Below are positions 13,145 through 54,900 of a stretch of DNA of 64,000 nt, piece after piece. This stretch comes from Amphibalanus amphitrite (Eukaryota; Arthropoda; Thecostraca; Balanomorpha; Balanidae). The position numbers and the translations under genes were made by a program. Location of the stretch: positions 62,001-126,000 of the forward strand of contig NW_024883109.1 in assembly GCF_019059575.1 (NCBI RefSeq). The letters run 5' to 3'. The notes below the pieces were generated by a model. The model did not search any database. It worked only from the letters and a program-made list of their open reading frames with translations, and was not told the origin of the DNA. Position 1 is the first letter of the stretch. Every line of letters begins with the position of its first letter.

Positions 13145-17951
<4,807 letters not shown>

Positions 17952-21285: not shown

Positions 21286-21289
21286 ACTG

Positions 21290-21885: not shown

Positions 21886-22189
21886 CGTGATTTGCTCGTA
21901 TTGATGTTTTGTAAGCCGCGAATGTATAAGGGGGTCCAACGACGCCCCCCACCCCCACCCCATTGCCTTTTGGCCCCTGATCGAGCTAGAGCTTCGCGGA
22001 AAAAACGAGCGTGTTGCCCGTGACGGGAGGAAGCCGATGATACCCAATTTTAAGATCTTAGGTCATTGGTCAGGTCAATGACCCAAACGGGAACATCGGG
22101 ACCTGTTAGAACGTCGTTAAGTGTGGCTGCCATGAGGTTTTTCGGGGTGCTGATGCCTGATCACGAATATCATGGTTGTTTTGTTCCCC

Positions 22190-22400
22190 GGGGAGCTAGG
22201 AAAGACACCATGCCGTGGGCCCTCCACGCGGACCTCCAGAAGGCGATCCAGGAGCGCCGGGCAGCCAGAGACAACGTGAAGTCGGGAGACCCGCGCAATC
22301 GAAAACCCGCTGGATCGAGGCGAAGCTCCGGGCCAGCCAGGTGGAGAAACGAGTAACCACTTAACCAGGGAGCAATTCCGGGACTTCGTTACGTTATACC
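22190..22400 (+). pseudogene. Probable LINE fragment (endonuclease-RT linker)
   Basis: Reads LQKAIQERRAARDNVKSGDP, then in a second frame RWIEAKLRASQVEKRVTT, then REQFRDFV. The pattern of charged helices (x-AI-x-ERR-x-AR) is typical of the segment before the reverse transcriptase of non-LTR retrotransposons. The frame is broken and no RT motif follows. Assignment is by pattern only. Confidence 0.35.
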
Positions 22401-22469
22401 GCCGTAGTCAGCTCCCCTCCCCTTCCCAGGCGCCGCGTGTGGGCGGCGGGAAGAACGCAGTGTCCGACG

Positions 22470-22624
22470 CAGTGGCGGCGGAACACCTTTTAAGGGAGTG
22501 GGGGGGGGGGCACTGCCGACTTTTGGTCCCATTTTTTCCATGCAACGCCCATAGGGCTAATGTTAAAATGCCAAAATCAAAGGGGGCACGGTGCCCCGGT
22601 GCCCTCCCCGTTTCGCCGCCGATG
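22470..22624. mobile_element. hAT-type MITE, 155 bp, family CAGTGGCGGCGGAA
   Basis: Ends CAGTGGCGGCGGAA and TTTCGCCGCCGATG. Flanks GTCCGACG (22462-22469) and GTCTGACG (22625-22632) differ at one base, consistent with an 8-bp hAT duplication. The interior shares CACTGCCGACTTTTGGTCCC and GCAACGCCCATAGGGCTAAT with a second copy at 53375-53523. Confidence 0.85.
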
Positions 22625-22639
22625 GTCTGACGGACGGTA

Positions 22640-25230: not shown

Positions 25231-25232
25231 TA

Positions 25233-25443
25233 CAGTCTGTCTTAACAGTACCGCGCAAAGTAACAGTGGATCCATCGAGCCTGACCGAGGAAGGACTGCT
25301 GGATTTGTGTCACCGAAACAATGGATATCCTCGTCCATTCCCCAGGTCAATTGATTCGGTGACTTTTAAATTATAGCAGGCCCTTCCTCGGTCAGGGTTC
25401 ATGGATCCACCGTCACTTTGCGCGGTACTTTTAAGACAGACTG
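25233..25443. mobile_element. Foldback MITE with TA flanks (Tc1/mariner-like)
   Basis: The arms begin CAGTCTGTCTTAACAGTACC and are repeated inverted at the right (GGTACTTTTAAGACAGACTG), each ~85 bp. The element is flanked by TA on both sides (25231-25232, 25444-25445). Internal arms include CTGACCGAGGAAGG and CCTTCCTCGGTCAG. The TA duplication suggests the Tc1/mariner superfamily. Non-coding. Confidence 0.75.
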
Positions 25444-25499
25444 TACAATACAATAAAATCAGTAACAAACGCTATAGTATCCGTTTACATGAGCATACC

Positions 25500-28400: not shown

Positions 28401-28591
28401 AAAGCATCCTTGTCATCCCTGTTTGAGATTGTCTTTGAAATGTAGTGACCAGGGGACGATTGCAAGAAGCTACGAAGTGTCACTGAACTGGACTTGAAAA
28501 ATTTTGAATTTGTTTCCTTTTCCAGAACACTAATGCACGCTTCCAGATCGCCAAAAGAAGAGAAAGAGTCACCTGCCTTTAACGCGGCCAT
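25500..28591 (-). CDS. ZSWIM-like protein derived from a MULE transposase
   Basis: Two exons, 28591-27692 (300 codons from the first ATG) and 27377-25500, join in phase 0 to give ~925 residues. N-terminus: a FAR1/ZSWIM3-like zinc-binding segment (Cys of LACTHGG, Cys of LDCPVLI, EHSH). Core: RNase H-like transposase fold with D in LLLMDSTYKLLDI, D in VWLTDKDRAEK, the FLCSFHVLQSF motif and E in TNNHLESLHGK. Then a SWIM zinc finger, CDCLFYRHYSLPCRHIMAV. The C-terminal ~300 residues are Ser/Pro-rich and end near an AT-hook-like RGRPKGSK. Architecture matches ZSWIM1/3-type proteins, which descend from Mutator-like transposases; cellular role is unclear. An acceptor just before the ATG (TTTGCTGTTTCAG) implies an upstream 5' UTR exon. 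The catalytic triad looks intact and no TIRs were found nearby, so host gene versus resident element stays open. Confidence 0.85.
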
Positions 28592-28929
28592 GTCTTTGCT
28601 GTCCACAAGATGCCGGTCGTCTGAAACAGCAAAACATAAACATTAAACATGTACAGCAAAAGCAACATTCTGCGATTTGTGACATGACATCAGACATGAC
28701 AGAGACATAGCATTGATAGTGGCCGGGGGGCGGGTACACTAGCATGGAAAGCCGAAAATCAACAGGACTAGACCAGAAGCTAGGAACAGAGTCACCAGGG
28801 GCAGAGGCAGAGCCGTAATAGGGCAGCTAAAAGCATGTAGAACCAACAGTGGGTCCAAGTAAGCCAGGACCAGGGCTAAACGAAGGATCACACGGAACAA
28901 GGGGAGCGCATGGTCCCCCGGAGCATTGA

Positions 28930-31900
28930 CTGGATCACCAGGAGCAAGAGTTGGGCGGGCGGGCGGACGGACGGACGGACGGACGGAACGACCGACAGGC
29001 AGACAGTGACAGGCAGACAGACAGTGTGAGTGCCAGGGCTGTAAGAGCCGCCAGAGGCAGGGGTAGGACTACCAGGGCAGGGTTAGGGCAACTAGGGACA
29101 GAGTCAGGGAAACCAGGGCAGGGGTATGGCTAGGACCACCAGGGGCAGGGACGGGGACACCATGGACCAGGGTAGGACCACCAGAGGCAGGGATAGGGAG
29201 GGAGGGCCACCAGGGGCATGGATAGGGCCACCAGGAGCTGGGGGGGGGGGGCAATCAGGGAAAGGGTAGGGGCTAGGTCAACCAATACCCATTCGTGCAA
29301 AACTATCACCTTTAAAATTTGACCTTTTTTGACCTTTTTTGACCTCACCTTGACCAGAAAGTGACCTAAGCCGTACCTGATAGTCTTATAAACAACACCA
29401 TTGAGTTGGAAATGAAAAATTGGCCATAAAACATGCATCACACAGCCTTAGTACCTAAAGTTAGGTTCATGTGACCTGACCTGTGACCCTTGGTGACCTG
29501 ACCTGGTAATGTCAGTGACCTCTTATAGCAACATATGTACTAGGCAACTGACGCCCTATCGCTGATTCTCGACAAAATGCGTTTTCTTCGGTGTTATAGC
29601 GCATTCCCTAGATGACCCGTGAACGGTGAAACATTTCATCTTTGACCTGACCTGTGACGTCATCGGTGACCCCGAGGTCAATGAAATTTGGTTTTCCTCG
29701 ACAAATTTGACAGGCCTTTCGAACGCCGTTTGAATTTTGCGGATCCGTCCAGTAGTTTCGGAGATACGAGAGGGGGGCAAAAAATAGCCCCCCACCAGGT
29801 CGCGTTATAAACAGACCCCACCAGGGCGCGGGTTAAGGTCACCAGGGACAGGGTTAGGGCCAATAAGGGCAAGGGTAGGACTACAGGGGCAGGAGTAGGT
29901 ACTAGGGCAGCCAGGGGCATGGATAGGACCACCAGGGACAGGGATAGGGTCATAAGGAGCTAGGACAACCAGGGGCAGGGCCGCCAGGGGCAGGAGTAGG
30001 TGCTAGGGCAACCAGGGGCAGGGGTAGGACCACCAGGGACAGGGATAGGTGCTAGGGCAACCAGGGGCAGGGGTAGGACCACCAGGGGCAGGGGTAGGAC
30101 CACCAGGGACAGGGATAGGTGCTAGGGCAACCAGGGGCAGGGTAGGACCACCAGGGACAGGGAAAGGGCCATAAGGAGCTAGGGCAACCAGGGGCAGGGG
30201 TATAGTTAGGGCCACCAGGGGCAAGGGGTTAAGGCCACCAGGGACAGGGGGTTAAGGCCAACAAGGGAGGGGCAGGGATGGGCCGCCAGGGACAAGAGTG
30301 GGAGCTAGGGCAAGCAGGGGCAGGGGCAGGGATGGTGCCACCAGGGACAAGAGTGGGTCCCACCAGGCCCAGGAGCAAGGTCAGGGCCACCAAGGGCAGG
30401 GCAAGGTGCTACGTTAACCAGGGGCAGGGATAGGGCCAACAGAGGCTGGAGTAGGACCACCAGGGGCAGGAATAGGGCCACCAGGAGCTAGGGCAGCCTG
30501 GGCAAGGGTAAGGGCTAAGGAAACCAATACAGGGTTAGGGGTTCTGGCAACCAATGCAGGGTTAGAGGCTATGGCAACCAATGCAGGGTTAGGGGCTATG
30601 ACAACCAGGGGCAGGGTAAGGGCCACCAGACACATGGATAGTCCCATCAGGAGCTAGGTCAACCAGGCCAGCGGTAGGGGCTTGGGCGCCCCACCAAAGG
30701 CAGGACGAGGGCCTAGGACAGCCAGGGGCAGAGATAGGGCCACCAGGGGCAGGGGTAGGTCCACCAGTGACCAGGGGCAGGGTTAGGGCAGCCAGGGGCA
30801 GGGTTAGGGCAGCCAGGGGCAGGGTTAGGGGACAGGGACAGGGGTAGGGCAACCAGGGGCAGGGGTAGGGCAACCAGGGGCAGGGCTAGGGCAGCCAGGG
30901 GCAGGGAAACCATGGCCAGGGTAGGGCTAGGACCAGCAGTAGGTAGAGCGACCAGGGGCACGACCACTAGGGGCAGGGACGGGGACACCATGGAGCAGGG
31001 TAGGACCACCAGGAGCAGGGATAGGGCCATCAGGGGCATGGATAGGGTCACCAGGAGCTGGGGGCAATCAGGGAAAGGGTAGGGGCTAGGGCAGCCAGGG
31101 GGTGGGGGTGGGGATAGAGCTGCCATGGGCAGGAGTAGGTGCTAGGGCAACCAGGGGCATGGATAGGGTCACCAGGGGAGGAGTAGGGTACTAGGGCAAC
31201 TAGGGGCAGGGTAAGGCCATCAAAGGCAGGGAGAGGGCCTGGGACAGCCAGGGGCAGAGATAGGGCCACCAGGGGCAGGGCTAGGGCAACCAAGGGGCAC
31301 CGGGCAGGGGTAGGGCAACCAGGAGCAGGGCAGTGCTAGGGCAGCCAGGGACAGGGGCTAGGGCAGCCAGGGGCAGGGAAACCATGGCCGGGGTAGGGCT
31401 AGGACCACCAGTAGGTAGGGCAACCAGGGGCCGGAATGGGGACACCATGGAGCAGGGTACTGGGTAGGACCACCAGGAGCAGGGATAGGGCCATCGGGCC
31501 TCGGGGGCATGGATAGGGCCACCAAGAGCTGGAGGCATTCAGATTCAGGGAAAGTGTAGGGGCTAGGACAGCCAGGGGAGGGGTGGGGATAGGGCTGCCA
31601 TGGGCAAGGGTAGGGCTAGGGCAACCAGGGGCAGGGATAGGGCCACCAGGAGCTAGGACAACCAGGGCCACCAGGAGCTAGGACAACCAGGGACAGCAGT
31701 AAGGGCTAGGGCAGCCAGGGGCAGGAGTAAGACCACCAGGGGCAGGGGTAGGACCACCAGGGGCAGGGATAGGGTCACCAGGGGAGGAGTAGGGTACTAG
31801 GGCATCTATAGGCAGGGTAGGGCCACCAAAGGCAGGGCGAGGGCCTAGGACAGCCAGGGGCAGAGATAGGGCCACCAGGGGCAGGGGTAGGTCCACTAGT

Positions 31901-34080
31901 GACTAGGGGCAGGGTTAGGGCAGCCAGGGGCAGGGTTAGGGCAGCCAGGGGCAGGGTTAGGGCAGCCAGGGGCAGGGTTAGGGCAGCCAGGGGCAGGGTT
32001 AGGGCAACCAGGGGCAGGGCTAGGGCAGCCAGGGGCAGGGAAACCATGGCCAGGGTAGGGCTAGAACCAGGGGCATGACCACTAGGGGCAGGGACGGGGA
32101 CACCATGGAGCAGGGTAGGACCACCAGGAGCATGGATAGGGCCATCAGGGGCATGGATAGGGCCACCAGGAGCTGGGGGCAATCAGGGAAAGGGTAGGGG
32201 CTAGGGCAGCCAGGAGGGGGTGGGGATAGGGCTGCCATGGGCAGGAGTAGGTGCTAGGGCAACCAGGGGCAGGGATAGGGTCACCAGGGGAGTAGGGTAC
32301 TAGGGCAACTAGGGGCAGGGTAAGGCCATCAAAGGCAGGGAGAGGGCCTAGGACAGCCAGGGGCAGAGATAGGACCACCATGGGCAGGGCTAGGGCAACC
32401 AAGGGGCACCGGGCAGAGGTAGGGCAACCAGGAGCAGGGCAGTGCTAGGGCAGCCAGGGACAGGGGCTAGGGCAGCCAGGGGCAGGGAAACCATGGCCGG
32501 GGTAGGGCTAGGACCACCAGTAGGTAGGGCAACCAGGGGCCGGAATGGGGACACCATGGAGCAGAGTACGGGGTAGGACCACCAGGAGCAGGGATAGGGC
32601 CACCAGGAGCTGGAGGCATTCAGGGAAAGTGTAGGGGCTAGGACAGCCAGGGGAGGGGTGGGGATAGGGCTGCCATGGGCAAGGGTAGGGCTAGGGCAAC
32701 CAGGGGCAGGGATAGGGCCACCAGGAGCTAGGATAACCAGGGACAGCAGTATGGGCTAGGGCAACCAGGGGCAGGAGTAAGACCACCAGGGGCAGGGATA
32801 GGGTCACCAGGGGAGGAGTAGGGTACTAGGGCAGCTATGGGCAGGGTAGGGCCACCAAAGGCAGGGCGAGGGCCTAGGACAGCCAGGGTCAGAGATAGGG
32901 CCACCAGGGGCAGGGGTAGGTCCACCAGTGACTAGGAGCAGGGTTAGGGCAGCCAGGGGCAGGGTTAGGGCAGCCAGGGGCAGGGTTAGGGCAGCCAGGG
33001 GCAGGGTTAGGGCAGCCAGAGGCAGGGAAACCATGGCCAGGGTAGGGCTAGGACCAGCAGTAGGTAGGGCGACCAGGGGCACGACCACTAGGGGCAGGGA
33101 TGGGGACACCATGGAGCAGGGTAGGACCACCAGGAGCAGGGATAGGGCCATCAGGGGCATGGATAGGGCCACCAGGAGCTAGGGGCAATCAGGGAAAGGG
33201 TAGGGGCTAGGGCAGCCAAGGGGAGGGGTGGGGATAGGGCTGCCATGGGCAGGAGTAGGTGCTAGGGCAACCAGGGCCGGGGCAGGGATAGGGCCACCAG
33301 GAGCTTGGACAACCAGGGGCAGCAGTAAGGGCTAGGGCAACCAGGGGCAGGAGTAAGACCACCAGGGGCAGGGATGGGACCACCAGGGGCATGATTAGGG
33401 CCACCAGTGGCAGAGTTCGGTACACCAGGGGCACAGGGTTAAGGCCAACAAGGGCAGGGGAGAACCACCTGGGGCAGGGATGGGGCCACCAGAGACAGGA
33501 GTAGGTGCTGGGGCAACCAGGGCCAGAGGCTAGAACAACCAGGGGCAGGGATAGGACCACCACTAGAAGGGCCACCATGGGCAGGGGTAGACCAGGCAGA
33601 GGCAGGGGAGGGACCACCAGGGGCAGGGCAGGGACCAACAGGGGCAGAGCAAGGGCTGTAATGGACAGGGGTGTTGTGAGTGTCAGGAGCAGGAGTAGAT
33701 CTAGGAGCAAAGGAAGGGCCATGTGTTACAGGGCCAGGGCTGTAAGGAACTGGGATGTGAGTGCAATCACTGTATGGGTCTGAAGGGGCAAGGACAGATT
33801 TTCCAGGAGCATGGGTAAAACCAACAGGGCCAGGGGCAAGGCCACCAGGAGCAGATATGGGGCCACAAGGGCCAGGGTGTGAGTGAAATGGTCAGCAGCA
33901 CTAATGACGGAGGTTTGGCCACATCCAGGGGCAGAGGTAAATCCATCTTCCATGCGCAGGGGTTAGCTGCCGAGGGCAGGGTGAGGGTTTTTGCATGCAG
34001 AGGGGCGAGGGCAGGGGTGGGCCAACTGCCAAGCCTTGGGACTTGCAGTGGCACTGGCAAGTGGCAGGAAGGTTTATAGC
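28930..34080. repeat. 5-kb G-rich minisatellite with higher-order repeats
   Basis: The basic unit is about 15-30 bp built from ACCAGGGGCAGGGATAGGGC and GGGCAGCCAGGGGCAGGGTT. Longer blocks recur, e.g. CCATGGCCAGGGTAGGGCTA followed by GACACCATGGAGCAGGGTAG near 30911, 31381, 32046, 32490 and 33030, so there are higher-order units of several hundred bp to ~1.1 kb. An unrelated GGTCA-containing segment interrupts it at about 29281-29835. The left edge contains GGGC/GGAC microsatellites (28951-28990). Long minus-strand frames rich in Leu/Pro/Ala are products of the repeat, not genes. Confidence 0.9.
29281..29835. repeat. Dispersed GGTCA/TGACCT-rich segment inside the minisatellite
   Basis: Contains many TGACCT motifs (TTTGACCTTTTTTGACCTCA, GTGACCTGACCTG) and ends near GGGCGCGGGTTAA, like the repeats at 10541-11266 and 58770-60259. 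Its left border was not resolved. Confidence 0.5.
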
Positions 34081-34341
34081 AGCTAGAATTTGACTGGTGA
34101 ATTTGAAGATGGTTAAAGGATGCATTTTGCATTGGACATTCCAATTGTAAAAACAAGTAATACAAAGAAAGTTCTTTTTATAGTAAGGGTCAATTTTGGG
34201 AAAGTTGAATAAAATACATTAAGTGGGAGATCATTCATTTTATTAGATTAATTTTATTTTTACTACGACGCTGCAAAATATTTTAAGCCATATCAACAAA
34301 ACTATTATGAGCACACATCACTTACACATTTGGATTTTTCT

Positions 34342-34500
34342 GGGGCCCTGTTTCATGACAACACTGACCCTACCCAGGTATTGGCACTGAGGTTCCATGG
34401 AAACTAAAGCAGAATTGCCAATTTTGTTTTACATTTCCATAGAAACTGAACACCAGTGCCTGCTAGCATCGGGTAGCATAACACATTAAAACATGGCCCA
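34342..34500. mobile_element. Diverged MITE of the GGGCCCTGTTTCA family
   Basis: Starts GGGGCCCTGTTTCATGAC and ends near AACATGGCCCA. Ends and interior (GTTCCATGGAAAC) suggest an old member of the family seen at 58948, 62186 and 62708. No target duplication was resolved. Confidence 0.4.
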
Positions 34501-35059
34501 GGTGCCACACAAGGGGTGCTCCTTACAATACCTAGTCCTAGTAGGTGCTGGCAGCATGTCACTCATGGCACAGGGTTTTGATTTAGCAGTAATATTTTTA
34601 ATTGATTGTTCCGCACATATCGACTTAGGATGAAATGAATGATAGCTCAGAGAGACGAGACCACAAACTAGCTAGGTAATGCAATGCAAAGATAAGTACC
34701 AGGTGGCATCACAAAAAAAATTACGCACAGGCCATGCTGGCGTCACAGTGTAAACACCGAGCTGCCTGGATAATACTATTTTACGAGAAAGCTATCTCAT
34801 CAACTGGGCCACAAAGAAAACTGCTAGCTTACAAAAAAGCATAGCAAAATAGCAAACAAATAACACAACTTTTGTATCATAGCCTCAGCCTCCCTTGGGT
34901 CAATCAAGCCAACTGAAACTGCCTGCAATTAATTCTACATTGACATTGATCAAATGGAAGTACAGGAAGTACTTACGCTAGGAATTCAAGCATCATTTGT
35001 GTACTACACTAACCATTGTCTACAAAAATCATGCTTTCAGCAAATTGCTCACCCTCAAC

Positions 35060-35460
35060 ACTCCAGATTCACCACAGACGCCTCCAGCTCGCCAACCGGT
35101 CCCCAGCCGAACGGACGCGGAAAGACCGGCGCGCACCCCTTGTCCCGCGGCCGACGCAACCCTTTCTTTGTTAAAATTCGCGCGGGACTTTGTGCGCATG
35201 CGCAGGCCCCATTACGTCACAGACTGGACGTGATTTTAGCACGTCAAGCCGCTGGAGTAAATCTACTTCGATCTGACGTGATTTTGGTCGCATTTTCCCC
35301 TGTGCTTAAAACTACTCCAGTCCGACGTCATTTAATCCCATGCAAAGCCGTGTGTAAAACTACTCAGAACCGAGAGTTGACGTGAAATAAGCAGGTACCG
35401 GTTGGTGTGTAAATCTACTCAGAACCGACGTGAAATACACAGTCGGTGGCGTTTTGAGTA
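35060..35460. repeat. Diverged relative of the 21290-21885 repeat
   Basis: Recurring GTGTAAATCTACTCAGAACC, GACGTGAAAT and TACTTCGATCTGACGTGATT phrases match the inverted vocabulary of the 21-kb repeat. It directly precedes the giant foldback element. Confidence 0.55.
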
Positions 35461-35699
35461 ATTGTACTTCTGACTTCATAAACACGCTTCCTTCAATCAA
35501 ATGGATGCATTTTAGACAGATGTGGCGCATGTTTGCATCAAAAGCATTATAGAGTTCACGTCCATCAATTGAGCAGCAGATTGATATTCGCGAATATCAA
35601 ACTAAAAATTCGATATTCGGACGGGAAACGCAATAACTCAAGAACCAGTGAACCGATTTTGATGAAAATGCCCTCATTCGATTCCTCGTTCCTTATTGC

Positions 35700-38600
35700 A
35701 GGTTGACAGCGATTTCCAGGTCACTAGGTCATGACCTTCAAGGTCAAGGTCAAGGTCAAAGGACGGGGAACGCTCTACAGCCTAAAGTTACCGTCCGATT
35801 GGCTTGTAAATGGTCTCAATCGATTCCTCGACCCCGATTCCAGGTTGACAGCGATTTCCAGGTCACTAGGTCATGACCTTCAAGGTCAAGGTCAAGGTCA
35901 AAGGACGGGGAACGCTCTACAGCCTAAAGTTACCGTCCGATTGGCTTGTAAATGGTCTCAATCGATTCCTCGACCCCGATTCCAGGTTGACAGCAATTTC
36001 CAGGTCACTAGGTCATGACCTTCAAGGTCAAGGTCAAGGTCAAAGGACGGGGAACGCTCTACAGCCTAAAGTTACCGTCCGATTGGCTTGTAAATGGTCT
36101 CAATCGATTCCTCGACCCCGATTCCAGGTTGACAGCGATTTCCAGGTCACTAGGTCATGACCTTCAAGGTCAAGGTCAAGGTCAAAGGACGGGGAACGCT
36201 CTACAGCCTAAAGTTACCGTCCGATTGGCTTCTAAATGGTCTCAATCGATTCCTCGACCCCGATTCTAGGTTGACAGCGATTTCCAGGTCACTAGGTCAT
36301 GACCTTTAAGGTCAAGGTCAAGGTCAAAGGACGGGGAACGCTCTATAGCCTAAAGTTACCGTCCGATTGGCTTGTAAATGGTCTCAATCGATTCCTCGAC
36401 CCCGATTCCAGGTTGACAGCGATTTCCAGGTCACTAGGTCATGACCTTCAAGGTCAAGGTCAAGGTCAAAGGACGGGGAACGCTCTACAGCCTAAAGTTA
36501 CCGTCCGATTGGCTTGTTAATGGTCTCAATCGATTCCTCGACCCCGATTCCAGGTTGACAGCGATTTCCAGGTCACTAGGTCATGACCTTCAAGGTCAAG
36601 GTCAAGGTCAAAGGACGGGGAACGCTCTACAGCCTAAAGTTACCGTCCGATTGGCTTGTAAATGGTCTCAATCGATTCCTCGACCCCGATTTCAGGTTGA
36701 CAACAATTTCCGGGTCACTAGGTCATGACCTTCAAGGTCAAGGTCAAGGTTCGCGAATATCAAACTAACAATTCGATATTCGGACGGGGAACGCAATAAC
36801 TCAAGAACCAGTGAACCGATTTTGATGAAAAGACCCTCATTCGATTCCTCGTTCCTCATTGCAGGTTGACAGCGATTTCCAGGTCACTAGGTCATGACCT
36901 TCAAGGTCAAGGTCAAGGTCAAAGGACGGGGAACGCTCTACAGCCTAAAGTTACCGTCCGATTGGCTTGTAAATGGTCTCAATCGATTCCTCGACCCCGA
37001 TTCCAAGTTGACAGCGATTTCCAGGTCACTAGGTCATGACCTTCAAGGTCAAGGTCAAGGTCAAAGGACGGGGAACGCTCTACAGCCTAAAGTTACCGTC
37101 CGATTGGCTTGTAAATGGTCTCAATCGATTCCTCGACCCCGATTCCAGGTTGACAGCGATTTCCAGGTCACTAGGTCATGACCTTCAAGGTCAAGGTCAA
37201 GGTCAAAGGACGGGGAACGCTCTACAGCCTAAAGTTACCGTCCGATTGGCTTGTAAATAGTCTCAATCGATTCCTCGACCCCGATTCCAGGTTGACAGCG
37301 ATTTCCAGGTCACTAGGTCATGACCTTCAAGGTCAAGGTCAAGGTCAAAGGACGGGGAACGCTCTACAGCCTAAAGTTACCGTCCGATTGGCTTGTTAAT
37401 GGTCTCAATCGATTCCTCGACCCCGATTCCAGGTTGACAGCGATTTCCAGGTCACTCGGTAATGACCTTCAAGGTCAAGGTCAAGGTCAAAGGACGGGGA
37501 ACGCTCTACAGCCTAAAGTTACCGTCCGATTGGCTTGTAAATGTTCTCAATCGATTCCTCGACCCCGATTCCAGGTTGACAGCGATTTCCAGATCACTAG
37601 GTCATGACCTTCAAGGTCAAGGTCAAGGTCAAAGGACGGGGAACGCTCTACAGCCTAAAGTTACCGTCCGATTGGCTTGTAAATGGTCTCAATCGATTCC
37701 TCGACCCCGATTCCAGGTTGACAGCGATTTCCAGGTCACTAGGTCATGACCTTCAAGGTCAAGGTCAAGGTCAAAGGACGGGGAACGCTCTACAGCCTAA
37801 AGTTACCGTCTGATTGGCTTGTAAATGGTCTCAATCGATTCCTCGACCCCGATTCCAGGTTGACAGTGATTTCCAGGTCACTAGGTCATGACCTTCAAGG
37901 TCAAGGTCAAGGTCAAAGGACGGGGAACGCTCTACAGCCTAAAGTTACCGTCCGATTGGCTTGTAAATGGTCTCAATCGATTCCTCGACCCCGATTCCAG
38001 GTTGACAGAGATTTCCAGGTCACTAGGTCATGACCTTCAAGGTCAAGGTCAAGGTCAAAGGACGGGGAACGCTCTACAGCCTAAAGTTACCGTCCGATTG
38101 GCTTGTAAATGGTCTCAATCGATTCCTCGACCCCGATTCCAGGTTGACAGCGATTTCCAGGTCACTAGGTCATGACCTTCAAGGTCAAGGTCAAGGTCAA
38201 AGGACGGGGAACGCTCTACAGCCTAAAGTTACCGTCCGATTGGCTTGTAAATGGTCTCAATCGATTCCTCGACCCTGATTCCAGATTGACAGCGATTTCC
38301 AGGTCACTAGGTCATGACCTTCAAGGTCAAGGTCAAGGTCAAAGGACGGGGAACGCTCTACAGCCTAAAGTTACCGTCCGATTGGCTTGTAAATGGTCTC
38401 AATCGATTCCTCGACCCCGATTCCAAGTTGACAGCGATTTCCAGGTCACTAGGTCATGACCTTCAAGGTCAAGGTCAAGGTCAAAGGACGGGGAACGCTC
38501 TACAGCCTAAAGTTACCGTCCGATTGGCTTGTAAATGGTCTCAATCGATTCCTCGACCCCGATTCCAGGTTGACAGCGATTTCCAGGTCACTAGGTCATG

Positions 38601-41085
38601 ACCTTCAAGGTCAAGGTCAAGGTCAAAGGACGGGGAACGCTCTACAGCCTAAAGTTACCGTCCGATTGGCTTGTTAATGGTCTCAATCGATTCCTCGACC
38701 CCGATTCCAAGTTGACAGCGATTTCCAGGTCACTAGGTCATGACCTTCAAGGTCAAGGTCAAGGTCAAAGGACGGGGAACGCTCTACAGCCTAAAGTTAC
38801 CGTCCGATTGGCTTGTAAATGGTCTCAATCGATTCCTCGACCCCGATTCTAGGTTGACAGCGATTTCCAGGTCACTAGGTCATGACCTTCAAGGTCAAGG
38901 TCAAGGTCAAAGGACGGGGAACGCTCTACAGCCTAAAGTTACCGTCCGATTGGCTTGTAAATGGTCTCAATCGATTCCTCGACCCCGATTCCAGGTTGAC
39001 AGCAATTTCCAGGTCACTAGGTCATGACCTTCAAGGTCAAGGTCAAGGTCAAAGGACGGGGAACGCTCTACAGCCTAAAGTTACCGTCCGATTGGCTTGT
39101 AAATGGTCTCAATCGATTCCTCGACCCCGATTCCAGGTTGACAGCGATTTCCAGGTCACTAGGTCATGACCTTCAAGGTCAAGGTCAAGGTCAAAGGACG
39201 GGGAACGCTCTACAGCCTAAAGTTACCGTCCGATTGGCTTCTAAATGGTCTCAATCGATTCCTCGACCCCGATTCTAGGTTGACAGCGATTTCCAGGTCA
39301 CTAGGTCATGACCTTTAAGGTCAAGGTCAAGGTCAAAGGACGGGGAACGCTCTACAGCCTAAAGTTACCGTCCGATTGGCTTGTAAATGGTCTCAATCGA
39401 TTCCTCGACCCCGATTCCAGGTTGACAGCGATTTCCAGGTCACTAGGTCATGACCTTCAAGGTCAAGGTCAAGGTCAAAGGACGGGGAACGCTCTACAGC
39501 CTAAAGTTACCGTCCGATTGGCTTGTTAATGGTCTCAATCGATTCCTCGACCCCGATTCCAGGTTGACAGCGATTTCCAGGTCACTAGGTCATGACCTTC
39601 AAGGCCAAGGTCAAGGTCAAAGGACGGGGAACGCTCTACAGCCTAAAGTTACCGTCCGATTGGCTTGTAAATGGTCTCAATCGATTCCTCGACCCCGATT
39701 TCAGGTTGACAACAATTTCCGGGTCACTAGGTCATGACCTTCAAGGTCAAGGTCAAGGTTCGCGAATATCAAACTAACAATTCGATATTCGGACGGGGAA
39801 CGCAATAACTCAAGAACCAGTGAACCGATTTTGATGAAAAGACCCTCATTCGATTCCTCGTTCCTCATTGCAGGTTGACAGCGATTTCCAGGTCACTAGG
39901 TCATGACCTTCAAGGTCAAGGTCAAGGTCAAAGGACGGGGAACGCTCTACAGCCTAAAGTTACCGTCCGATTGGCTTGTAAATGGTCTCAATCGATTCCT
40001 CGACCCCGATTCCAGGTTGACAGCGATTTCCAGGTCACTAGGTCATGACCTTCAAGGTCAAGGTCAAGGTCAAAGGACGGGGAACGCTCTACAGCCTAAA
40101 GTTACCGTCCGATTGGCTTGTAAATGGTCTCAATCGATTCCTCGACCCCGATTCCAGGTTGACAGCGATTTCCAGGTCACTAGGTCATGACCTTCAAGGT
40201 CAAGGTCAAGGTCAAAGGACGGGGAACGCTCTACAGCCTAAAGTTACCGTCCGATTGGCTTGTAAATAGTCTCAATCGATTCCTCGACCCCGATTCCAGG
40301 TTGACAGCGATTTCCAGGTCACTAGGTCATGACCTTCAAGGTCAAGGTCAAGGTCAAAGGACGGGGAACGCTCTACAGCCTAAAGTTACCGTCCGATTGG
40401 CTTGTTAATGGTCTCAATCGATTCCTCGACCCCGATTCCAGGTTGACAGCGATTTCCAGGTCACTCGGTAATGACCTTCAAGGTCAAGGTCAAGGTCAAA
40501 GGACGGGGAACGCTCTACAGCCTAAAGTTACCGTCCGATTGGCTTGTAAATGTTCTCAATCGATTCCTCGACCCCGATTCCAGGTTGACAGCGATTTCCA
40601 GGTCACTAGGTCATGACCTTCAAGGTCAAGGTCAAGGTCAAAGGACGGGGAACGCTCTACAGCCTAAAGTTACCGTCCGATTGGCTTGTAAATGGTCTCA
40701 ATCGATTCCTCGACCCCGATTCCAGGTTGACAGCGATTTCCAGGTCACTAGGTCATGACCTTCAAGGTCAAGGTCAAGGTCAAAGGACGGGGAACGCTCT
40801 ACAGCCTAAAGTTACCGTCTGATTGGCTTGTAAATGGTCTCAATCGATTCCTCGACCCCGATTCCAGGTTGACAGTGATTTCCAGGTCACTAGGTCATGA
40901 CCTTCAAGGTCAAGGTCAAGGTCAAAGGACGGGGAACGCTCTACAGCCTAAAGTTACCGTCCGATTGGCTTGTAAATGGTCTCAATCGATTCCTCGACCC
41001 CGATTCCAGGTTGACAGCGATTTCCAGGTCACTAGGTCATGACCTTCAAGGTCAAGGTCAAGGTCAAAGGACGGGGAACGCTCTA
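35700..41085 (+). repeat. Left arm: ~35 forward 142-bp units in three blocks
   Basis: Units begin at ATGACCTTCAAGGTCAAGG positions 35731, 35873 and so on, every 142 bp. Blocks of 7, 20 and 8 full units are separated by partial units that reset to the terminal sequence (TTCGCGAATATCAAACTAAC at ~36750 and ~39760). Variant units recur at a 3,009-bp offset (e.g. 37178/40187, 37462/40471, 37746/40755), so a 3-kb segment was itself duplicated. The frame through each unit (MTFKVKVKVKGRG...) is not a gene: 142 is not a multiple of three. Confidence 0.92.
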
Positions 41086-44000
41086 TTACAAGCCAATCGG
41101 ACGGTAACTTTAGGCTGTAGAGCGTTCCCCGTCCTTTGACCTTGACCTTGACCTTGAAGGTCATGACCTAGTGACCTGGAAATCGCTGTCAACCTGGAAT
41201 CGGGGTCGAGGAATCGATTGAGACCATTTACAAGCCAATCGGACGGTAACTTTAGGCTGTAGAGCGTTCCCCGTCCTTTGACCTTGACCTTGACCTTGAA
41301 GGTCATGACCTAGTGACCTGGAAATCGCTGTCAACCTGGAATCGGGGTCGAGGAATCGATTGAGACCATTTACAAGCCAATCGGACGGTAACTTTAGGCT
41401 GTAGAGCGTTCCCCGTCCTTTGACCTTGACCTTGACCTTGAAGGTCATGACCTAGTGACCTGGAAATCGCTGTCAACCTGGAATCGGGGTCGAGGAATCG
41501 ATTGAGACCATTTACAAGCCAATCGGACGGTAACTTTAGGCTGTAGAGCGTTCCCCGTCCTTTGACCTTGACCTTGACCTTGAAGGTCATGACCTAGTGA
41601 CCTGGAAATCGCTGTCAACCTGAAATCGGGGTCGAGGAATCGATTGAGACCATTTACAAGCCAATCGGACGGTAACTTTAGGCTGTAGAGCGTTCCCCGT
41701 CCTTTGACCTTGACCTTGACCTTGAAGGTCATGACCTAGTGACCTGGAAATCGCTGTCAACCTGGAATCGGGGTCGAGGAATCGATTGAGACCATTTACA
41801 AGCCAATCGGACGGTAACTTTAGGCTGTAGAGCGTTCCCCGTCCTTTGACCTTGACCTTGACCTTGAAGGTCATGACCTAGTGACCTGGAAATCGCTGTG
41901 AACCTGAAATCGGGGTCGAGGAATCGATTGAGACCATTTACAAGCCAATCGGACGGTAACTTTAGGCTGTAGAGCGTTCCCCGTCCTTTGACCTTGACCT
42001 TGACCTTGAAGGTCATGACCTAGTGACCTGGAAATCGCTGTCAACCTGCAATGAGGAACGAGGAATCGAATGAGGGTCTTTTCATCAAAATCGGTTCACT
42101 GGTTCTTGAGTTATTGCGTTCCCCGTCCGAATATCGAATTGTTAGTTTGATATTCGCAAACCTTGACCTTGACCTTGAAGGTCATGACCTAGTGACCCGG
42201 AAATTGTTGTCAACATGGAATCGGGGTCGAGGAATCGATTGAGACCATTTACAAGCCAATCGGACGGTAACTTTAGGCTGTAGAGCGTTCCCCGTCCTTT
42301 GACCTTGACCTTGACCTTGAAGGTCATGACCTAGTGACCTGGAAATCGCTGTCAACCTGGAATCGGGGTCGAGGAATCGATTGAGACCATTTACAAGCCA
42401 ATCGGACGGTAACTTTAGGCTGTAGAGCGTTCCCCGTCCTTTGACCTTGACCTTGACCTTGAAGGTCATGACCTAGTGACCTGGAAATCGCTGTCAACCT
42501 AGAATCGGGGTCGAGGAATCGATTGAGACCATTTACAAGCCAATCGGACGGTAACTTTAGGCTGTAGAGCGTTCCCCGTCCTTTGACCTTGACCTTGACC
42601 TTGAAGGTCATGACCTAGTGACCTGGAAATCGCTGTCAACTTGGAATCGGGGTCGAGGAATCGATTGAGACCATTAACAAGCCAATCGGACGGTAACTTT
42701 AGGCTGTAGAGCGTTCCCCGTCCTTTGACCTTGACCTTGACCTTGAAGGTCATGACCTAGTGACCTGGAAATCGCTGTCAACCTGGAATCGGGGTCGAGG
42801 AATCGATTGAGACCATTTACAAGCCAATCGGACGGTAACTTTAGGCTGTAGAGCGTTCCCCGTCCTTTGACCTTGACCTTGACCTTGAAGGTCATGACCT
42901 AGTGACCTGGAAATCGCTGTCAACCTAGAATCGGGGTCGAGGAATCGATTGAGACCATTTACAAGCCAATCGGACGGTAACTTTAGGCTGTAGAGCGTTC
43001 CCCGTCCTTTGACCTTGACCTTGACCTTGAAGGTCATGACCTAGTGACCTGGAAATCGCTGTCAACCTGGAATCGGGGTCGAGGAATCGATTGAGACCAT
43101 TAACAAGCCAATCGGACGGTAACTTTAGGCTGTAGAGCGTTCCCCGTCCTTTGACCTTGACCTTGACCTTGAAGGTCATGACCTAGTGACCTGGAAATCG
43201 CTGTCAACCTGGAATCGGGGTCGAGGAATCGATTGAGACCATTTACAAGCCAATCGGACGGTAACTTTAGGCTGTAGAGCGTTCCCCGTCCTTTGACCTT
43301 GACCTTGACCTTGAAGGTCATGACCTAGTGACCTGGAAATCGCTGTCAACCTGGAATCGGGGTCGAGGAATCGATTGAGACTATTTACAAGCCAATCGGA
43401 CGGTAACTTTAGGCTGTAGAGCGTTCCCCGTCCTTTGACCTTGACCTTGACCTTGAAGGTCATGACCTAGTGACCTGGAAATCGCTGTCAATCTGGAATC
43501 GGGGTCGAGGAATCGATTGAGACCATTTACAAGCCAATCGGACGGTAACTTTAGGCTGTAGAGCGTTCCCCGTCCTTTGACCTTGACCTTGACCTTGAAG
43601 GTCATGACCTAGTGACCTGGAAATCGCTGTCAACCTGGAATCGGGGTCGAGGAATCGATTGAGACCATTTACAAGCCAATCGGACGGTAACTTTAGGCTG
43701 TAGAGCGTTCCCCGTCCTTTGACCTTGACCTTGACCTTGAAGGTCATGACCTAGTGACCTGGAAATCTCTGTCAACCTGGAATCGGGGTCGAGGAATCGA
43801 TTGAGACCATTTACAAGCCAATCGGACGGTAACTTTAGGCTGTAGAGCGTTCCCCGTCCTTTGACCTTGACCTTGACCTTGAAGGTCATGACCTAGTGAC
43901 CTGGAAATCGCTGTCAACCTGCAATGAGGAACGAGGAATCGAATGAGGGTCTTTTCATCAAAATCGGTTCACTGGTTCTTGAGTTATTGCGTTCCCCGTC

Positions 44001-45070
44001 CGAATATCGAATTGTTAGTTTGATATTCGCAAACCTTGACCTTGACCTTGAAGGTCATGACCTAGTGACCCGGAAATTGTTGTCAACCTGGAATCGGGGT
44101 CGAGGAATCGATTGAGACCATTTACAAGCCAATCGGACGGTAACTTTAGGCTGTAGAGCGTTCCCCGTCCTTTGACCTTGACCTTGACCTTGAAGGTCAT
44201 GACCTAGTGACCTGGAAATCGCTGTCAACCTGGAATCGGGGTCGAGGAATCGATTGAGACCATTTACAAGCCAATCGGACGGTAACTTTAGGCTGTAGAG
44301 CGTTCCCCGTCCTTTGACCTTGACCTTGACCTTGAAGGTCATGACCTAGTGACCTGGAAATCGCTGTCAACCTAGAATCGGGGTCGAGGAATCGATTGAG
44401 ACCATTTACAAGCCAATCGGACGGTAACTTTAGGCTGTAGAGCGTTCCCCGTCCTTTGACCTTGACCTTGACCTTGAAGGTCATGACCTAGTGACCTGGA
44501 AATCGCTGTCAACTTGGAATCGGGGTCGAGGAATCGATTGAGACCATTAACAAGCCAATCGGACGGTAACTTTAGGCTGTAGAGCGTTCCCCGTCCTTTG
44601 ACCTTGACCTTGACCTTGAAGGTCATGACCTAGTGACCTGGAAATCGCTGTCAACCTGGAATCGGGGTCGAGGAATCGATTGAGACTATTTACAAGCCAA
44701 TCGGACGGTAACTTTAGGCTGTATAGCGTTCCCCGTCCTTTGACCTTGACCTTGACCTTGAAGGTCATGACCTAGTGACCTGGAAATCGCTGTCAACCTG
44801 GAATCGGGGTCGAGGAATCGATTGAGACCATTTACAAGCCAATCGGACGGTAACTTTAGGCTGTAGAGCGTTCCCCGTCCTTTGACCTTGACCTTGACCT
44901 TGAAGGTCATGACCTAGTGACCTGGAAATCGCTGTCAACCTGGAATCGGGGTCGAGGAATCGATTGAGACCATTTACAAGCCAATCGGACGGTAACTTTA
45001 GGCTGTAGAGCGTTCCCCGTCCTTTGACCTTGACCTTGACCTTGAAGGTCATGACCTAGTGACCTGGAAA
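35720..45070. promoter_or_regulatory. Array of nuclear-receptor-like half-sites (AGGTCA), putative
   Basis: Each 142-bp unit contains AGGTCACTAGGTCATGACCT followed by TCAAGGTCAAGGTCAAGGTC: six AGGTCA/TGACCT hexamers. These include a perfect inverted repeat AGGTCATGACCT and three overlapping TCAAGGTCA matches. With ~61 units this is roughly 366 hexamers. TCAAGGTCA is the known monomer site of FTZ-F1/SF-1 and ERR-type receptors. Actual binding is inference; the motif may simply be a property of the transposon. Confidence 0.3.
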
Positions 45071-45100
45071 TCGCTGTCAACCTGCAATAAGGAACGAGGA
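41086..45100 (-). repeat. Right arm: ~26 inverted 142-bp units in three blocks
   Basis: The same unit in reverse orientation, in blocks of 7, 12 and 7 counted from the centre outwards. Two internal resets to the terminal sequence lie at ~42035-42170 and ~43910-44040, 1,873 bp apart. Arm lengths are unequal (left ~5.5 kb, right ~4.1 kb). Confidence 0.92.
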
Positions 45101-45347
45101 ATCGAATGAGGGCATTTTCATCAAAATCGGTTCACTGGTTCTTGAGTTATTGCGTTCCCCGTCCGAATATCGAATTTTTAGTTTGATATTCGCGAATATC
45201 AATCTGCTGCTCAATTGATGGACGTATAGAGTTCAGTGATCAAAAGTGACATTCGCGAAACACGGCGTGCCCCGTGCGATTTGTTGGTATTATTGAAATT
45301 TGATATGTGATGCACGAGGCAGTTGAAAGACTTTGAACCGGGTTTGC

Positions 45348-46538
45348 ATGATGTCATCAAGTCATGCTCTTTCACTTCACCTGAAAATGTGCAAGCTTGT
45401 CGTGGAGGCATCCGTTGAGGAAAGTACGAGCTGGGGAGACCTGTACAAGCTTTTGCCGCAATTGCGCCATGCGCTGGCCTGCACAGTTTGTGGGTGCATT
45501 ATCGAGGAACCAAGAAGTCCATCAGATCAGCATTGTCAACATAGTGTGTGCAAGAGCTGTGTTGGCGGAAAGAAGCGCTTGAAGCCATCATGCAGTTACT
45601 GCAAGGACTACCAATTATATGTTCCGAACCAGCAACTGAAGCTCATCGTTGATGCCTTCAGGAAGACATGTCAGTATCTGCAACATACTAAAATATATGA
45701 AAGGTTAAACTCTTTTTCTCTGAATGGTGGCAAGTCAAGTCTTGTTGAACTGATTCAAGAAGGAGCAGACAATGAGCAACCAAATGAGTGGGCTGTGAAG
45801 GAAGATGGAGATACCATGAGAGAAGTCCCTGTGGTGAAAAGTGAGATTGTTGACTCAGAACATTCCTCCAATGAAGGGGTTTCCTACCATGCCAACATCC
45901 ATATATCCAGCCAAGTGAGTATGCCTCTGGTCACTTCTCCTCAGATCATTCCCTCACCATCACCTGGCATTCAGTCACAACCATGTCCAAGCCCTGAGGT
46001 TCATTTTGCCCATCAGCCTGTCATGTCCCATGTGCCTCCTTCCCCACAACCTCCCTCCTTGCCTCCCCCACCCACATCGACACCAGTGTCTCATCCATTT
46101 TACTCCATGTTCTTTTCAAGTGATGGAGGAAGAACTGCGAAACTTAAAGCACCCTCAGAGCACCCTAACCACCACAGGCTTCCTGTGGCAGCGGCATTCA
46201 GCCAACCTGCGGAGCGCATCCCGAGCAGGTTGGGGCCCGTCGGTGGTATCAGTGGATCAAGGATGGTACCCAGGAAGAAGGTGCAGAGGGGCTGCCGATG
46301 TGGAAATGCAACCCCCACTCCAGGCAAGCTCACTTGCTGTGGACAAAGGTGCCCCTGCTATGTTGAGTCAAGGGCCTGTCTAGACTGCAAGTGCAGAGGA
46401 TGCAGAAATCCTCACAGGCCTGGTGGGAAAAAAGTGAGACCACATATTCCAAATCAAGAAAGCATCAAGGTTCATGAGCTTCACCAACCACTGCACCAGA
46501 CAGTTGTTCCAGAAGCTGCGCCCAACTCACAGCAGCCT

Positions 46539-46571
<33 letters not shown>

Positions 46572-46772
46572 CAGCAGCCTGTGTTCCAGCCCATGAGGAT
46601 AGACTCTCCCCATCACCCAGCTGGTGGGTTGCCACCAGTCCATCATGTCATTCACATGCAGCATCCCATGTTTCAAGCACCCATGTTCATCAACACAGTT
46701 CCAGTGGCAACCATTGCCAATAGTGTATTCATGACAGACTCATCCCAGAACAGTGATTCAATAGAGGTGTGA
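45348..46772 (+). CDS. msl2: MSL2, RING E3 ubiquitin ligase / CXC DNA-binding subunit of the MSL complex
   Basis: The protein is 474 residues from the ATG at 45348 (a second ATG follows directly). MSL2 ubiquitinates chromatin targets and directs the MSL histone H4K16 acetylation complex; in Drosophila it is the male-limiting dosage-compensation factor. An N-terminal helix (DLYKLLPQLRHALA) precedes a RING finger, residues ~45-88: CTVC, CQHSVCKSC, CSYC. The middle is low-complexity and Pro/Ser-rich. The CXC domain begins at Cys316: CRCGNATPTPGKLTCC, CPCYVESRACLDCKCRGC. A polyglutamine run follows. The order RING, linker, CXC is diagnostic. The gene is intronless here, although the vertebrate gene has an intron near the start, so a retrocopy cannot be excluded. 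The giant foldback element ends 122 bp before the ATG, so the core promoter and 5' UTR must lie in that gap, within the element, or be joined from further upstream. Confidence 0.93.
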
Positions 46773-51900: not shown

Positions 51901-54900
51901 GTTTACATTCAGGTGAGCTCGTCGGGGTCGCCTACCTGTACGGACAGGGCCGTAGGCTCGACGAGTACAGGGTGGGTGACCCCGACACGCAGCACGGCGA
52001 GGATGACGATGTTGGCGATGACCTCGACGAGGGATTCGAGGACGTCGAGGACATCTTCGTGACCGACGCGTACGATGGTCTCGAAATGCCAGTAAGTTAA
52101 TTAAAGAGTACCGGAGGGTGTGTCGACAGAGGTGTTTTTCTCACAGATTCGCGTTAGACAAAGATATAAAGTGGCGCGAGCATGCCAAAACATTAGCCCT
52201 GCAGTTGGTTTTGCGTAATAGTGCGATTTGACGAGGCTCGTGCGGGTCGAAGTTACAGCGAAAAAGTCGCAGTCGACGGTGCTGCCACCTACATTGCCAA
52301 TAACGGACACTATCATATCGTGATAATTGGGGTAGTTTCAAATGAGAAATGACTTCTATTTTTGTTCAAACTGCTTTAGAAGAAATGAAACAATTCGGAA
52401 ACATACATTTTTCCCAAATATCGCGTTCCATTTTTTCCTGTTGAGTTGTTAGGAAAGTGGTAAATTTCAAGGTTGACGGCTAAAAAACGAAACAGGAGGA
52501 ACAGAGCAGGAATCACGAAGACGTGTGCCGCGCCGATGCTGTAGCCTGTAGATAAGGGGTGAGCAACAGAACCAGCATACCTAACGATTTTGATTAGTGA
52601 TAGATATTTTTCTCTAAATGAAAGACTATTAGTAACTCAGGCAAGCCCTCTAATATAGGTATCGACAGGGTTGCGGTAAAAGGTACAATCGATGGCACAT
52701 TACAATTATTCTGAGTTGGGAAACAACACTCTTCAGATACCTACCATCAACAACCTCACTATCTCCTATATGGGAGCTATATCATCTGATTCCAGCGCCC
52801 TGAAAACAAACAGGTTATCACCAAATATCTCTGTATTAGCGCCTACCGATATATGCTGAATGACGCTATCAATACCCGACATTTGTAAAAGGTGATTCGC
52901 CACACAGACCGCCGGCGTCTGAGGGGTTGAATCAGTGAGCCAGATTGCCAGCGACTCACCGCTGAACTACCGGGCATAACAAAACGGACGATGCGACATG
53001 ACTCAGAGATCATCACAGACGCGACGGTAAGCCGCCAACAGCTCCTCTGATGTTTGCTTTAAAAATGTTGGCCAAAATTTAAGATCGATGTAATCTAGTG
53101 CTAATATTTGGGTTTTCGGTTTTCTAATTCCCTCTATTTCGCGTATTGCTTGAAAATAGCTAGAAGGTTTCTTTTCACCGATAGCAAGTGATTTAGTTCA
53201 AAAGATTGGTGGTGCTGCTACTGGCAACATTATTGGCGCAATATAACCGTTCTTTAGTCACCGTGTCAATAATATTGACACAGTGAATGACCACCGACTC
53301 TCACTGAATGTATCTTCCTGTTCCGCAGGAAGCTGAGCTGTGACTGACTGGCCATTACGTGTCATCAGTTCGGCCAGTAGCGGCGGAATACCTTCAATTA
53401 AGAGGGGCACTGCCGACTTTTGGTCCCATATTCTTTCTATGCAACGCCCATAGGGCTAATGTTAAAATGCCAAAATCAAAGGGGGCACGGTGCCGCGGTG
53501 CCCTCCCCGTTCCGTCGCCTATGAGTTCGGCTTGACAAGGGAACCGCGAGGTGGCAGATAGCGATATTACGTATCTGAACGAGGGTTCCGCACGAGATTA
53601 GATGGCCTTCGGTTACATTTGTCGTTGCGTCTGTGATGATCTCTGAGTCATGTCGCATCGTCCGTTTTGTTATGCCCGGTAGTTCAGCGGTGAGTCGCTG
53701 GCAATCTGGCTCACTGATTCAACCCCTCAGACGCCGGCGGTCTGTGTGGCGAATCACCTTTTACAAATGTCAGGTATTGATAGCGTCATTCAGCATATGT
53801 CGGTAGGCGCTAATACAGAGATTTTTGGTGATAACCTGTTTGTTTTCAGGGCGCTGGAATCAGATGATATAGCTCCCATATAGGAGATAGTGAGGTTGTT
53901 GATGGTAGGTATCTGAATAGTGTTGTTTCCCAACTCAGAATAATTGTATTGTGCCATCGATTGTACCTTTTACCGCAACCCTGTTGATACCTATATTAGA
54001 AGGCTTGCCTGAGTTACTAATAGTCTTTCATTTAGAGAAAAATATCTATCACTAATCAAAATCGTTAGGTATGCTGGTTCTGTTGCTCACCCCTTATCTA
54101 CAGGCTACAACATCGGCGCGGCACACGTCTTGGTGATTCCTGCTCTGTTCCTCCTGTTTCGTTTTTTAGCCGTCAACCTTGAAATTTACCACTTTCCTAA
54201 CAACTCAACAGGAAAAAATGGAACGCGATATTTGGGAAAAATGTATGTTTCCGAATTGTTTTATTTCTTCTCAAGCAGTTTGAACAAAAATAGAAGTCAT
54301 TTCTCATTTGAAACTACCCCAATTATCACGATATGATAGTGCCCGTTATTGGCAATGTAGGTGGCAGCACCGTCCACTGCGACTTTTTCGCTGTAACTTC
54401 GACCTGCCCGAGCCTCGTCAAATCGCATTTACGCAAAACCAACGGCAGGGCTAGTGTTTTGGCATGCTCGCGCCACTTTTATCTTTGTCTAACGCGAATC
54501 TGCGACTATCGACACACCCACTACCCAAAACATAACAATATGATTAAAAATTAAAGCTAAATGCAACTACTTCAATTTTGCGATATACTGCACCCTTTGA
54601 TGGATGTTATTTACCCTATTACTTTCTGCATCCCAAATGAAGCAAGCATATAACTTATTTCATAGGTGTACAGGTAACTTAGGATCGCGAAACATACTGA
54701 GCTCATGACTACATCGCTTGTGTTTCAGCTTCAGACGCCTCTCCCGGCCGCTCCCGTCGGAGTCCCCAGCCTCGCCGCCGCCGGACCTCAGGGACCCGCT
54801 ACCGCCCGAGTCCCCAGCTCCGCCGACGCTGGGCCTCAGAGTCCCGCCGACGCTGGGCCTCAGAATCCCGCCGCCGGACCTCAGAGTCCCGCCGCCGCTG

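What the first reader, a model, noticed from the sequence alone, without database searches (positions are those of the whole stretch)
35549..45234. A 9.7-kb inverted satellite array is a single giant foldback transposon
At first sight this is two head-to-head tandem arrays of a 142-bp unit. Its outer termini are inverted copies of each other and are flanked by the identical 9-mer ATAGAGTTC. The array therefore moved, or was born, as one TIR element whose arms are the satellite. The form matches Drosophila Foldback elements and the 9-bp duplication of Mutator-like elements, but this copy is very large and lacks any central loop.
Basis: partly seen in the sequence, partly recalled or inferred. 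Interest (0 to 1): 0.9.

Follow-up and report, generated by a model that had tools for sequence, protein, structure and literature searches.

The report
Barnacle jumping palindromes built of satellite
A 9.7-kb block of inverted satellite repeats in a barnacle genome is one copy of a family of jumping DNA elements; the other copies that were read each carry their own short insertion scar, and most have a differently mended centre.

Summary
Window 35558-45225 (9,668 bp) is two head-to-head arrays of a 142-bp unit, with inverted outer ends and ATAGAGTTC on each side. The host is the barnacle Amphibalanus amphitrite or a very near relative.

The terminal 23-mer (up to 2 mismatches) occurs 94 times in the 808-Mb genome; the reversed control gave 0. 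The hits form 36 facing pairs and 22 single ends. The 25 pairs read end to end all have a target duplication: 9 bp in 22, 8 bp in 2, 7 bp in 1. Lengths run from 618 to 20,057 bp. One target is uninterrupted in other copies, and a second MSL2 contig lacks the window element.

New here: 24 comparable centres fall into about 19 junctions, often with filler, while the ends stay fixed and arm lengths vary independently.

No autonomous partner was found, so kinship with Mutator rests on the duplication length. Tetris, Galileo and Tm1 are nearest in form. Verdict: a real foldback family; new variant of a known kind.

The parts
35549..35557 (.). left copy of the target duplication ATAGAGTTC
45226..45234 (.). 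right copy of the target duplication ATAGAGTTC
35558..35672 (+). left outer terminal segment (about 115 bp), begins ACGTCCATCAATTGAGC
45111..45225 (-). right outer terminal segment, inverted copy of the left one (139 of 140 bases alike over the outer 140)
35673..41085 (+). left arm: tandem 142-bp units
41086..45110 (-). right arm: the same units inverted
36750..36860 (+). internal truncated copy of the terminal segment (lacks its outer 29 bases)
39759..39869 (+). internal truncated copy of the terminal segment
42050..42160 (-). internal truncated copy of the terminal segment
43923..44033 (-). internal truncated copy of the terminal segment
41085..41086 (.). centre of the palindrome: the two arms meet with no filler and no overlap

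Best explanation
The block is one copy of a non-autonomous foldback DNA transposon family whose arms are a 142-bp satellite. SHOWN: copies share the same outer ends in inverted orientation, each read copy has its own duplicated target (9 bp as a rule), and one has uninterrupted related targets. INFERRED: a transposase made elsewhere, most likely of the Mutator-like kind, recognises the outer ends and moves the whole palindrome. SHOWN: the ends are conserved, the number of units per arm varies freely (3 to 86), and the centre join differs between most of the copies compared. INFERRED: arms lengthen and shorten by unequal exchange or slippage; the centre is remade when a break is mended, either because gap repair after excision copies inward from both ends and stops, the half-copied arms being joined by error-prone end joining, or because an extruded hairpin is cut at its tip and rejoined.
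For: 94 terminal 23-mers against 0 for the reversed control, 36 facing pairs; 25 of 25 fully read pairs with target duplications, 22 of them 9 bp and all different; five genome places run through the joined target of L031 over all 500 bases at 98-99%, two more cross the join; contig C1155 lacks the window element. About 19 junctions among 24 centres; 14 of 19 representatives have 1-69 bp of filler and 5 have none with 0-7 bp overlap; in 9 of the 14 the filler holds a longer locally copied block than shuffled filler (p < 0.05). Arm unit counts uncorrelated (rho 0.21, p 0.34, 23 copies) and the outer 400 bp of the two arms of one copy more alike than random pairing (1.44% against 2.05%, 0 of 5,000 permutations).
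Against: No transposase with these ends was found: of 111 listed MULE-domain hits (150 of 204 candidates scored) only the window's own gene lies within 20 kb of an end, and it belongs to another element. Three of the nine templated fillers (L031, L032, L055) are poorly anchored, and 5 of 14 fillers show no significant copying. Seven copies share two junctions, so a finished centre also spreads unchanged. C1155 is not a clean empty site: 25 bases including the target are missing. Two of the facing pairs, C44 and C1148, hold non-satellite DNA at 2 of 3 and 3 of 3 sampled points.
Confidence: 0.8

Rival explanations
1. Assembly artefact: two inverted satellite arrays joined by the assembler, with a chance 9-mer at the edges.
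For: Long palindromic arrays are hard to assemble (general knowledge); no reads were available here.
Against: 25 of 25 fully read pairs have target duplications, 22 of exactly 9 bp with 22 different sequences; related uninterrupted targets exist for one. A misjoin would not make them.
Confidence: 0.03
2. A foldback transposon of another superfamily than Mutator, convergent in form, as Galileo (P superfamily) is among Drosophila foldbacks.
For: No MULE transposase was found with these ends. Galileo shows that the foldback form arises in other superfamilies (passages). Three of 25 copies have 7-8 bp duplications.
Against: 22 of 25 duplications are 9 bp. A MULE-domain element with a 9-bp duplication and near-identical other copies is present in this genome.
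Confidence: 0.25
3. The centres differ because each copy or small group arose anew from a one-armed element by inverted duplication (for example foldback priming at a break), not because finished palindromes are revised.
For: About 19 junctions in 24 copies. Foldback priming at breaks is a described source of inverted duplications (PMC10622511, search listing and start of abstract only).
Against: No one-armed copy among the 25 read with both ends, but 21 of the 22 single ends were not read (C267 was read in part; C415, L048, has one end in hand and a nested insertion). L058 has units in one arm only. Two junctions are shared by copies with very different arms, 5 and 2 copies.
Confidence: 0.25

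Closest known systems
Tetris foldback transposon of Drosophila virilis (PMC4079207; parts 1-2 of 6 and passages seen)
   Same: Inverted arms made of tandem repeats (about 220 bp) inside outer flanking ends; 8-10 bp target duplications; no coding sequence; assigned to Mutator by duplication length; repeats also amplify as satellite.
   Different: Arms up to 1,735 bp there, about 13.6 kb here (right arm of C75). Tetris has a middle domain; 24 copies here have arms that meet directly or across up to 69 bp. Three structurally complete copies there, 25 read here. No sequence comparison was made.
Galileo (P superfamily) of Drosophila (PMC3573991; outline, abstract and passages seen)
   Same: Long, internally repetitive inverted ends; independent repeat number in the two ends of one copy.
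   Different: A transposase is known and belongs to the P superfamily; ends up to about 1.26 kb; a middle region is present in nearly complete copies. Its 7-bp duplication is recalled, not from a call.
Tm1 Mutator/Foldback family of root-knot nematodes (PMC3169594; passages seen)
   Same: 8-10 bp duplications, mostly 9; tandem repeats in the inverted ends, different in number at the two ends.
   Different: Units of about 14 bp, 1-9 per end; asymmetric outer motifs; a Phantom-like transposase is reported for one form.
Foldback (FB) elements of Drosophila melanogaster
   Same: Inverted arms of tandem repeats and 9-bp duplications (recalled, and as summarised in PMC3169594 passages).
   Different: Short units (recalled); no sequence relation was tested here.
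MITE-borne and Helitron-borne satellites (reviews PMC9659126 and PMC12628747; passages seen)
   Same: Tandem repeats carried and spread by a mobile element.
   Different: Those repeats lie inside the element or in a central array; here they are both inverted arms and nearly the whole element.

Membership tests
Foldback-type (FB-like) DNA transposon | long inverted arms that make up most of the element | tested here: met
   23 of 23 copies, and L057; L058 has both ends but units in one arm only
Foldback-type (FB-like) DNA transposon | tandem repeats inside the inverted arms | tested here: met
   882 units counted in 24 loci
Foldback-type (FB-like) DNA transposon | insertion as one unit with target duplication | tested here: met
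   25 of 25 fully read pairs; related uninterrupted targets for one
Mutator superfamily | target duplication of 8-11 bp, usually 9 | tested here: met
   22 of 25 are 9 bp, 2 are 8, 1 is 7
Mutator superfamily | MULE transposase encoded by an element with the same ends | tested here: inconclusive
   none of 111 listed MULE-domain hits (150 of 204 candidates scored) lies between such ends; nearest is the window's own, in another element; 11 pairs and 21 single ends were not read through
Satellite DNA in the classical sense | long head-to-tail arrays free of transposon ends | not tested
   the genome-wide search for the unit did not complete (15 tries, last)
The 14.2-kb MULE element of the window (21249-35491) | same terminal sequence as the foldback | tested here: not met
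   ends GGACGCGTGT / GGAAGCGTGT against ACGTCCATCAATTGAGC

The most novel reading that the evidence does not exclude
A satellite that spreads by being a palindromic transposon. Each round of excision and repair copies satellite inward from the two fixed ends and closes the centre with a fresh end-joining scar, so that transposition itself is the engine that grows, trims and disperses the satellite.
Probability: 0.3. Interest if true: 0.78.

Novelty: new variant of a known kind. Interest (0 to 1): 0.62.

Why it matters
Foldback elements with satellite-like arms were known from short and mostly rearranged copies. Here one genome offers dozens of copies with fixed ends and individually scarred centres, which makes two open questions testable: how satellites grow inside transposons, and how very long palindromes are broken and mended in a germ line. 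It also warns that an inverted satellite array in an assembly can be a mobile element and not an error. This copy ends about 0.1 kb from the open frame of MSL2, next to two other inverted-repeat insertions on the two contigs, so effects on that gene could be asked.

Tried and rejected
Assembly join: see rivals. An 11-bp duplication (TATAGAGTTCA): possible for this copy alone, set aside because most other copies share exactly 9. The MULE-domain gene at 25500-28642 as a partner with the same ends: rejected, its element (21249-35491) has other ends. The wide pairs C44 (17.3 kb) and C1148 (15.2 kb) as autonomous copies: three short samples each showed satellite at 1 of 3 points in C44 and at none in C1148; one C1148 sample is a repeat also seen beside other copies, another looks by eye like a LINE reverse transcriptase; no transposase seen, but most of their length is unread. 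Relatives elsewhere: a 27-base piece of the unit has 0 exact matches in viral contigs and in prokaryote genome contigs; other barnacles could not be searched.

Faults: the filler test covered too few phases of the unit and was replaced. Centres were grouped by reading the junctions printed; the script also linked L036-L049-L050 and L054-L056-L057, which I judged to be ordinary unit sequence, and it missed L042_43 (one mismatch). Rows dropped: L048 (one end, nested insertion) and L059 (diverged, one end) from the counts of complete copies; L058 from the centre and arm tests; L050 from the permutation test (insertion in its left end); L057 from the arm-count correlation. In one search several copies have indels in the outer 390 bases, so the gap-tolerant one search is the one used.

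Full report
WHAT IS THERE. The MSL2 frame at 45327-46772 is 99% identical over 99% of the query to a protein named for Amphibalanus amphitrite, on a contig of 224,962 bases. The genome that holds the window, G000 (807,550,619 bases, 2,644 contigs; the window is C1612:62001-126000), has a contig of exactly that length, C1155, which matches the window beside MSL2. So the host is that barnacle, and C1612 and C1155 look like two versions (alleles or near-identical copies) of one region.

The element runs from 35558 to 45225 between two ATAGAGTTC copies. From each side inward there is an outer terminal segment of about 115 bp, then tandem 142-bp units with a few truncated copies of the terminal segment among them. 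The arms meet at 41085/41086. No other sequence lies between the ends.

TEST OF MOBILITY. A search with the first 135 bases gave 40 matches (40 of 252 candidates scored). The first 23 bases, with up to 2 mismatches, hit 94 places, 43 on one strand and 51 on the other; the reversed control hit none. They form 36 facing pairs 618 to 20,682 bp wide and 22 single ends. I fetched 26 stretches with 23 further copies and later two more copies and one old fragment. With the window copy, 25 pairs were read end to end. All 25 have a target duplication: exactly 9 bp in 22, 8 bp in L034 and L038, 7 bp in L032 (L057 and L058 read from the letters printed). The 22 nine-mers all differ, with some richness in A at positions 5 and 6 (11 and 10 of 22). 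L048 has one end and a nested insertion and is not counted.

EMPTY SITES. The joined flanks of L031, with one 9-mer, give a 500-base query. Five other places match it over all 500 bases at 98-99% (two with the same length, three with 4 bases more, place not examined), C109 matches 1-479 and C57 145-500 at 94%. By eye the target reads as the end of a LINE frame (flank translations); no family search was made. For the window copy, C1155 carries the flanks without the element, but 25 bases including the target are missing between two copies of ATCAAAAG. That could be an excision scar closed on 8 bp of homology or an unrelated deletion; one site cannot decide. A few bases further right C1155 has another insertion of about 3.9 kb, ends GGACACGCC / GGACATGCC, with an 8- or 9-bp duplication.

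ARCHITECTURE ACROSS COPIES. Of the 25, 24 have units in both arms; L058 (618 bp) has units in one. In the 23 copies arms hold 3 to 86 units; the longest arm is about 13.6 kb (C75). Left and right counts are not correlated (rho 0.21, p 0.34, 23 copies). Units are about 96% alike wherever compared: same arm 0.9616, other arm 0.9622, other element 0.9606 (882 units, a quarter of all pairs sampled). In the outer 400 bp the two arms of one copy diverge by 1.44% against 2.05% for random pairing, and none of 5,000 permutations was as low (23 copies). So the arms of one copy share some recent history or exchange, but most unit variation is that of the whole family.

THE CENTRES. 24 centres were compared. 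Five copies share one junction (L034, L038 and, in the other orientation, L035, L037, L042_43) and two share another (L033, L051_53); the other 17 look different, about 19 junctions in all. Among 19 representatives five have no filler, with 0-7 bp of overlap (the window copy has 0); fourteen have 1-69 bp of filler. In nine of the fourteen the longest block found within 150 bp on either side, either strand, beats shuffled filler at p < 0.05; of these L031, L032 and L055 are poorly anchored; five show no such excess. Overlaps and locally copied filler are, from general knowledge, marks of error-prone end joining.

HOW IT MOST LIKELY WORKS. A transposase made elsewhere acts on the conserved outer ends and moves the palindrome, leaving a 9-bp duplication (movement shown, agent inferred). 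Arms change length independently of each other. The centre is broken and rejoined, in gap repair that stops before the array is copied or at the tip of an extruded hairpin (inferred). Copies that share a centre but differ in length, 3.4 kb and 20 kb for one pair, show that arm change and centre change are separate processes.

WHO MOVES IT. 111 MULE-domain hits were listed (150 of 204 candidates scored). Only the window's own gene lies within 20 kb of one of the 94 ends (7.8 kb). It sits in another element, 21249-35491, 14,243 bp, duplication TTCAATCAA, with other ends; its right end is confirmed by other genome copies that stop matching at 35491-35494. So the Mutator assignment of the foldback rests on duplication length, and another superfamily remains possible.

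COMPARISON. Tetris, Galileo and Tm1 share the plan. What differs is size (arms to about 13.6 kb against 1,735 bp in Tetris and about 1.26 kb in Galileo), the lack of a middle domain in the copies read, and the many different centres. The searches listed no paper on a barnacle foldback by title; most were seen as listings only, subscription papers are largely missing, and the last paper searches failed, so this is weak evidence of novelty.

VERDICT. The kind is known; the scale, the near-absence of anything but satellite and the remade centres make it a new variant.

Noticed in passing
window 21249-35491: A complete-looking 14.2-kb element with a MULE/ZSWIM3-like transposase gene (25500-28642, - strand), duplication TTCAATCAA, holding the 21-bp minisatellite at 29.0-33.6 kb; at least 7 other contigs carry both a match to its right end and a MULE-domain hit 6-13 kb away.
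   Followed up: partly
window 35486-35570 and L060/L061 (contig C1155): Three different inverted-repeat insertions within about 100 bp beside MSL2: the MULE element and the foldback on the window contig, and a 3.9-kb element (ends GGACACGCC / GGACATGCC) on C1155, which lacks the other two.
   Followed up: partly
window 15402-15836: A 419-bp element with ends CAGGGGCGTCGAC and duplication ATTATTTC (hAT-like form, recalled), tandem-repeat filled; the near-identical segment at 13315-14206 has the uninterrupted site.
   Followed up: yes
window 52141-53026 and 53623-54505: Inverted repeat of 886 bp, 97.4% identical, with about 0.6 kb between; no clear target duplication seen.
   Followed up: partly
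window 14054-14212, 25225-25453, 62708-62986: Short self-inverse (palindromic) stretches, probably small inverted-repeat elements.
   Followed up: no
L059 (C267:484400-485240): An old relative of the foldback with one diverged end (86% over 90 bp) and units of about 80-84%, beside a different tandem array: the family has older generations.
   Followed up: no
L057 (C219) and pairs on C411, C512, C1375: A subgroup whose 23-base end finishes in AGT instead of AGA; a second split is unit position 34 G or C, usually the same in both arms of a copy.
   Followed up: no
L050 and L048: Nested insertions: about 260 bp in the left end of L050 with a 10-bp overlap of the query, and a longer one in L048 that begins CAGTGGTCGGCAGG (hAT-like by recall).
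   Followed up: no
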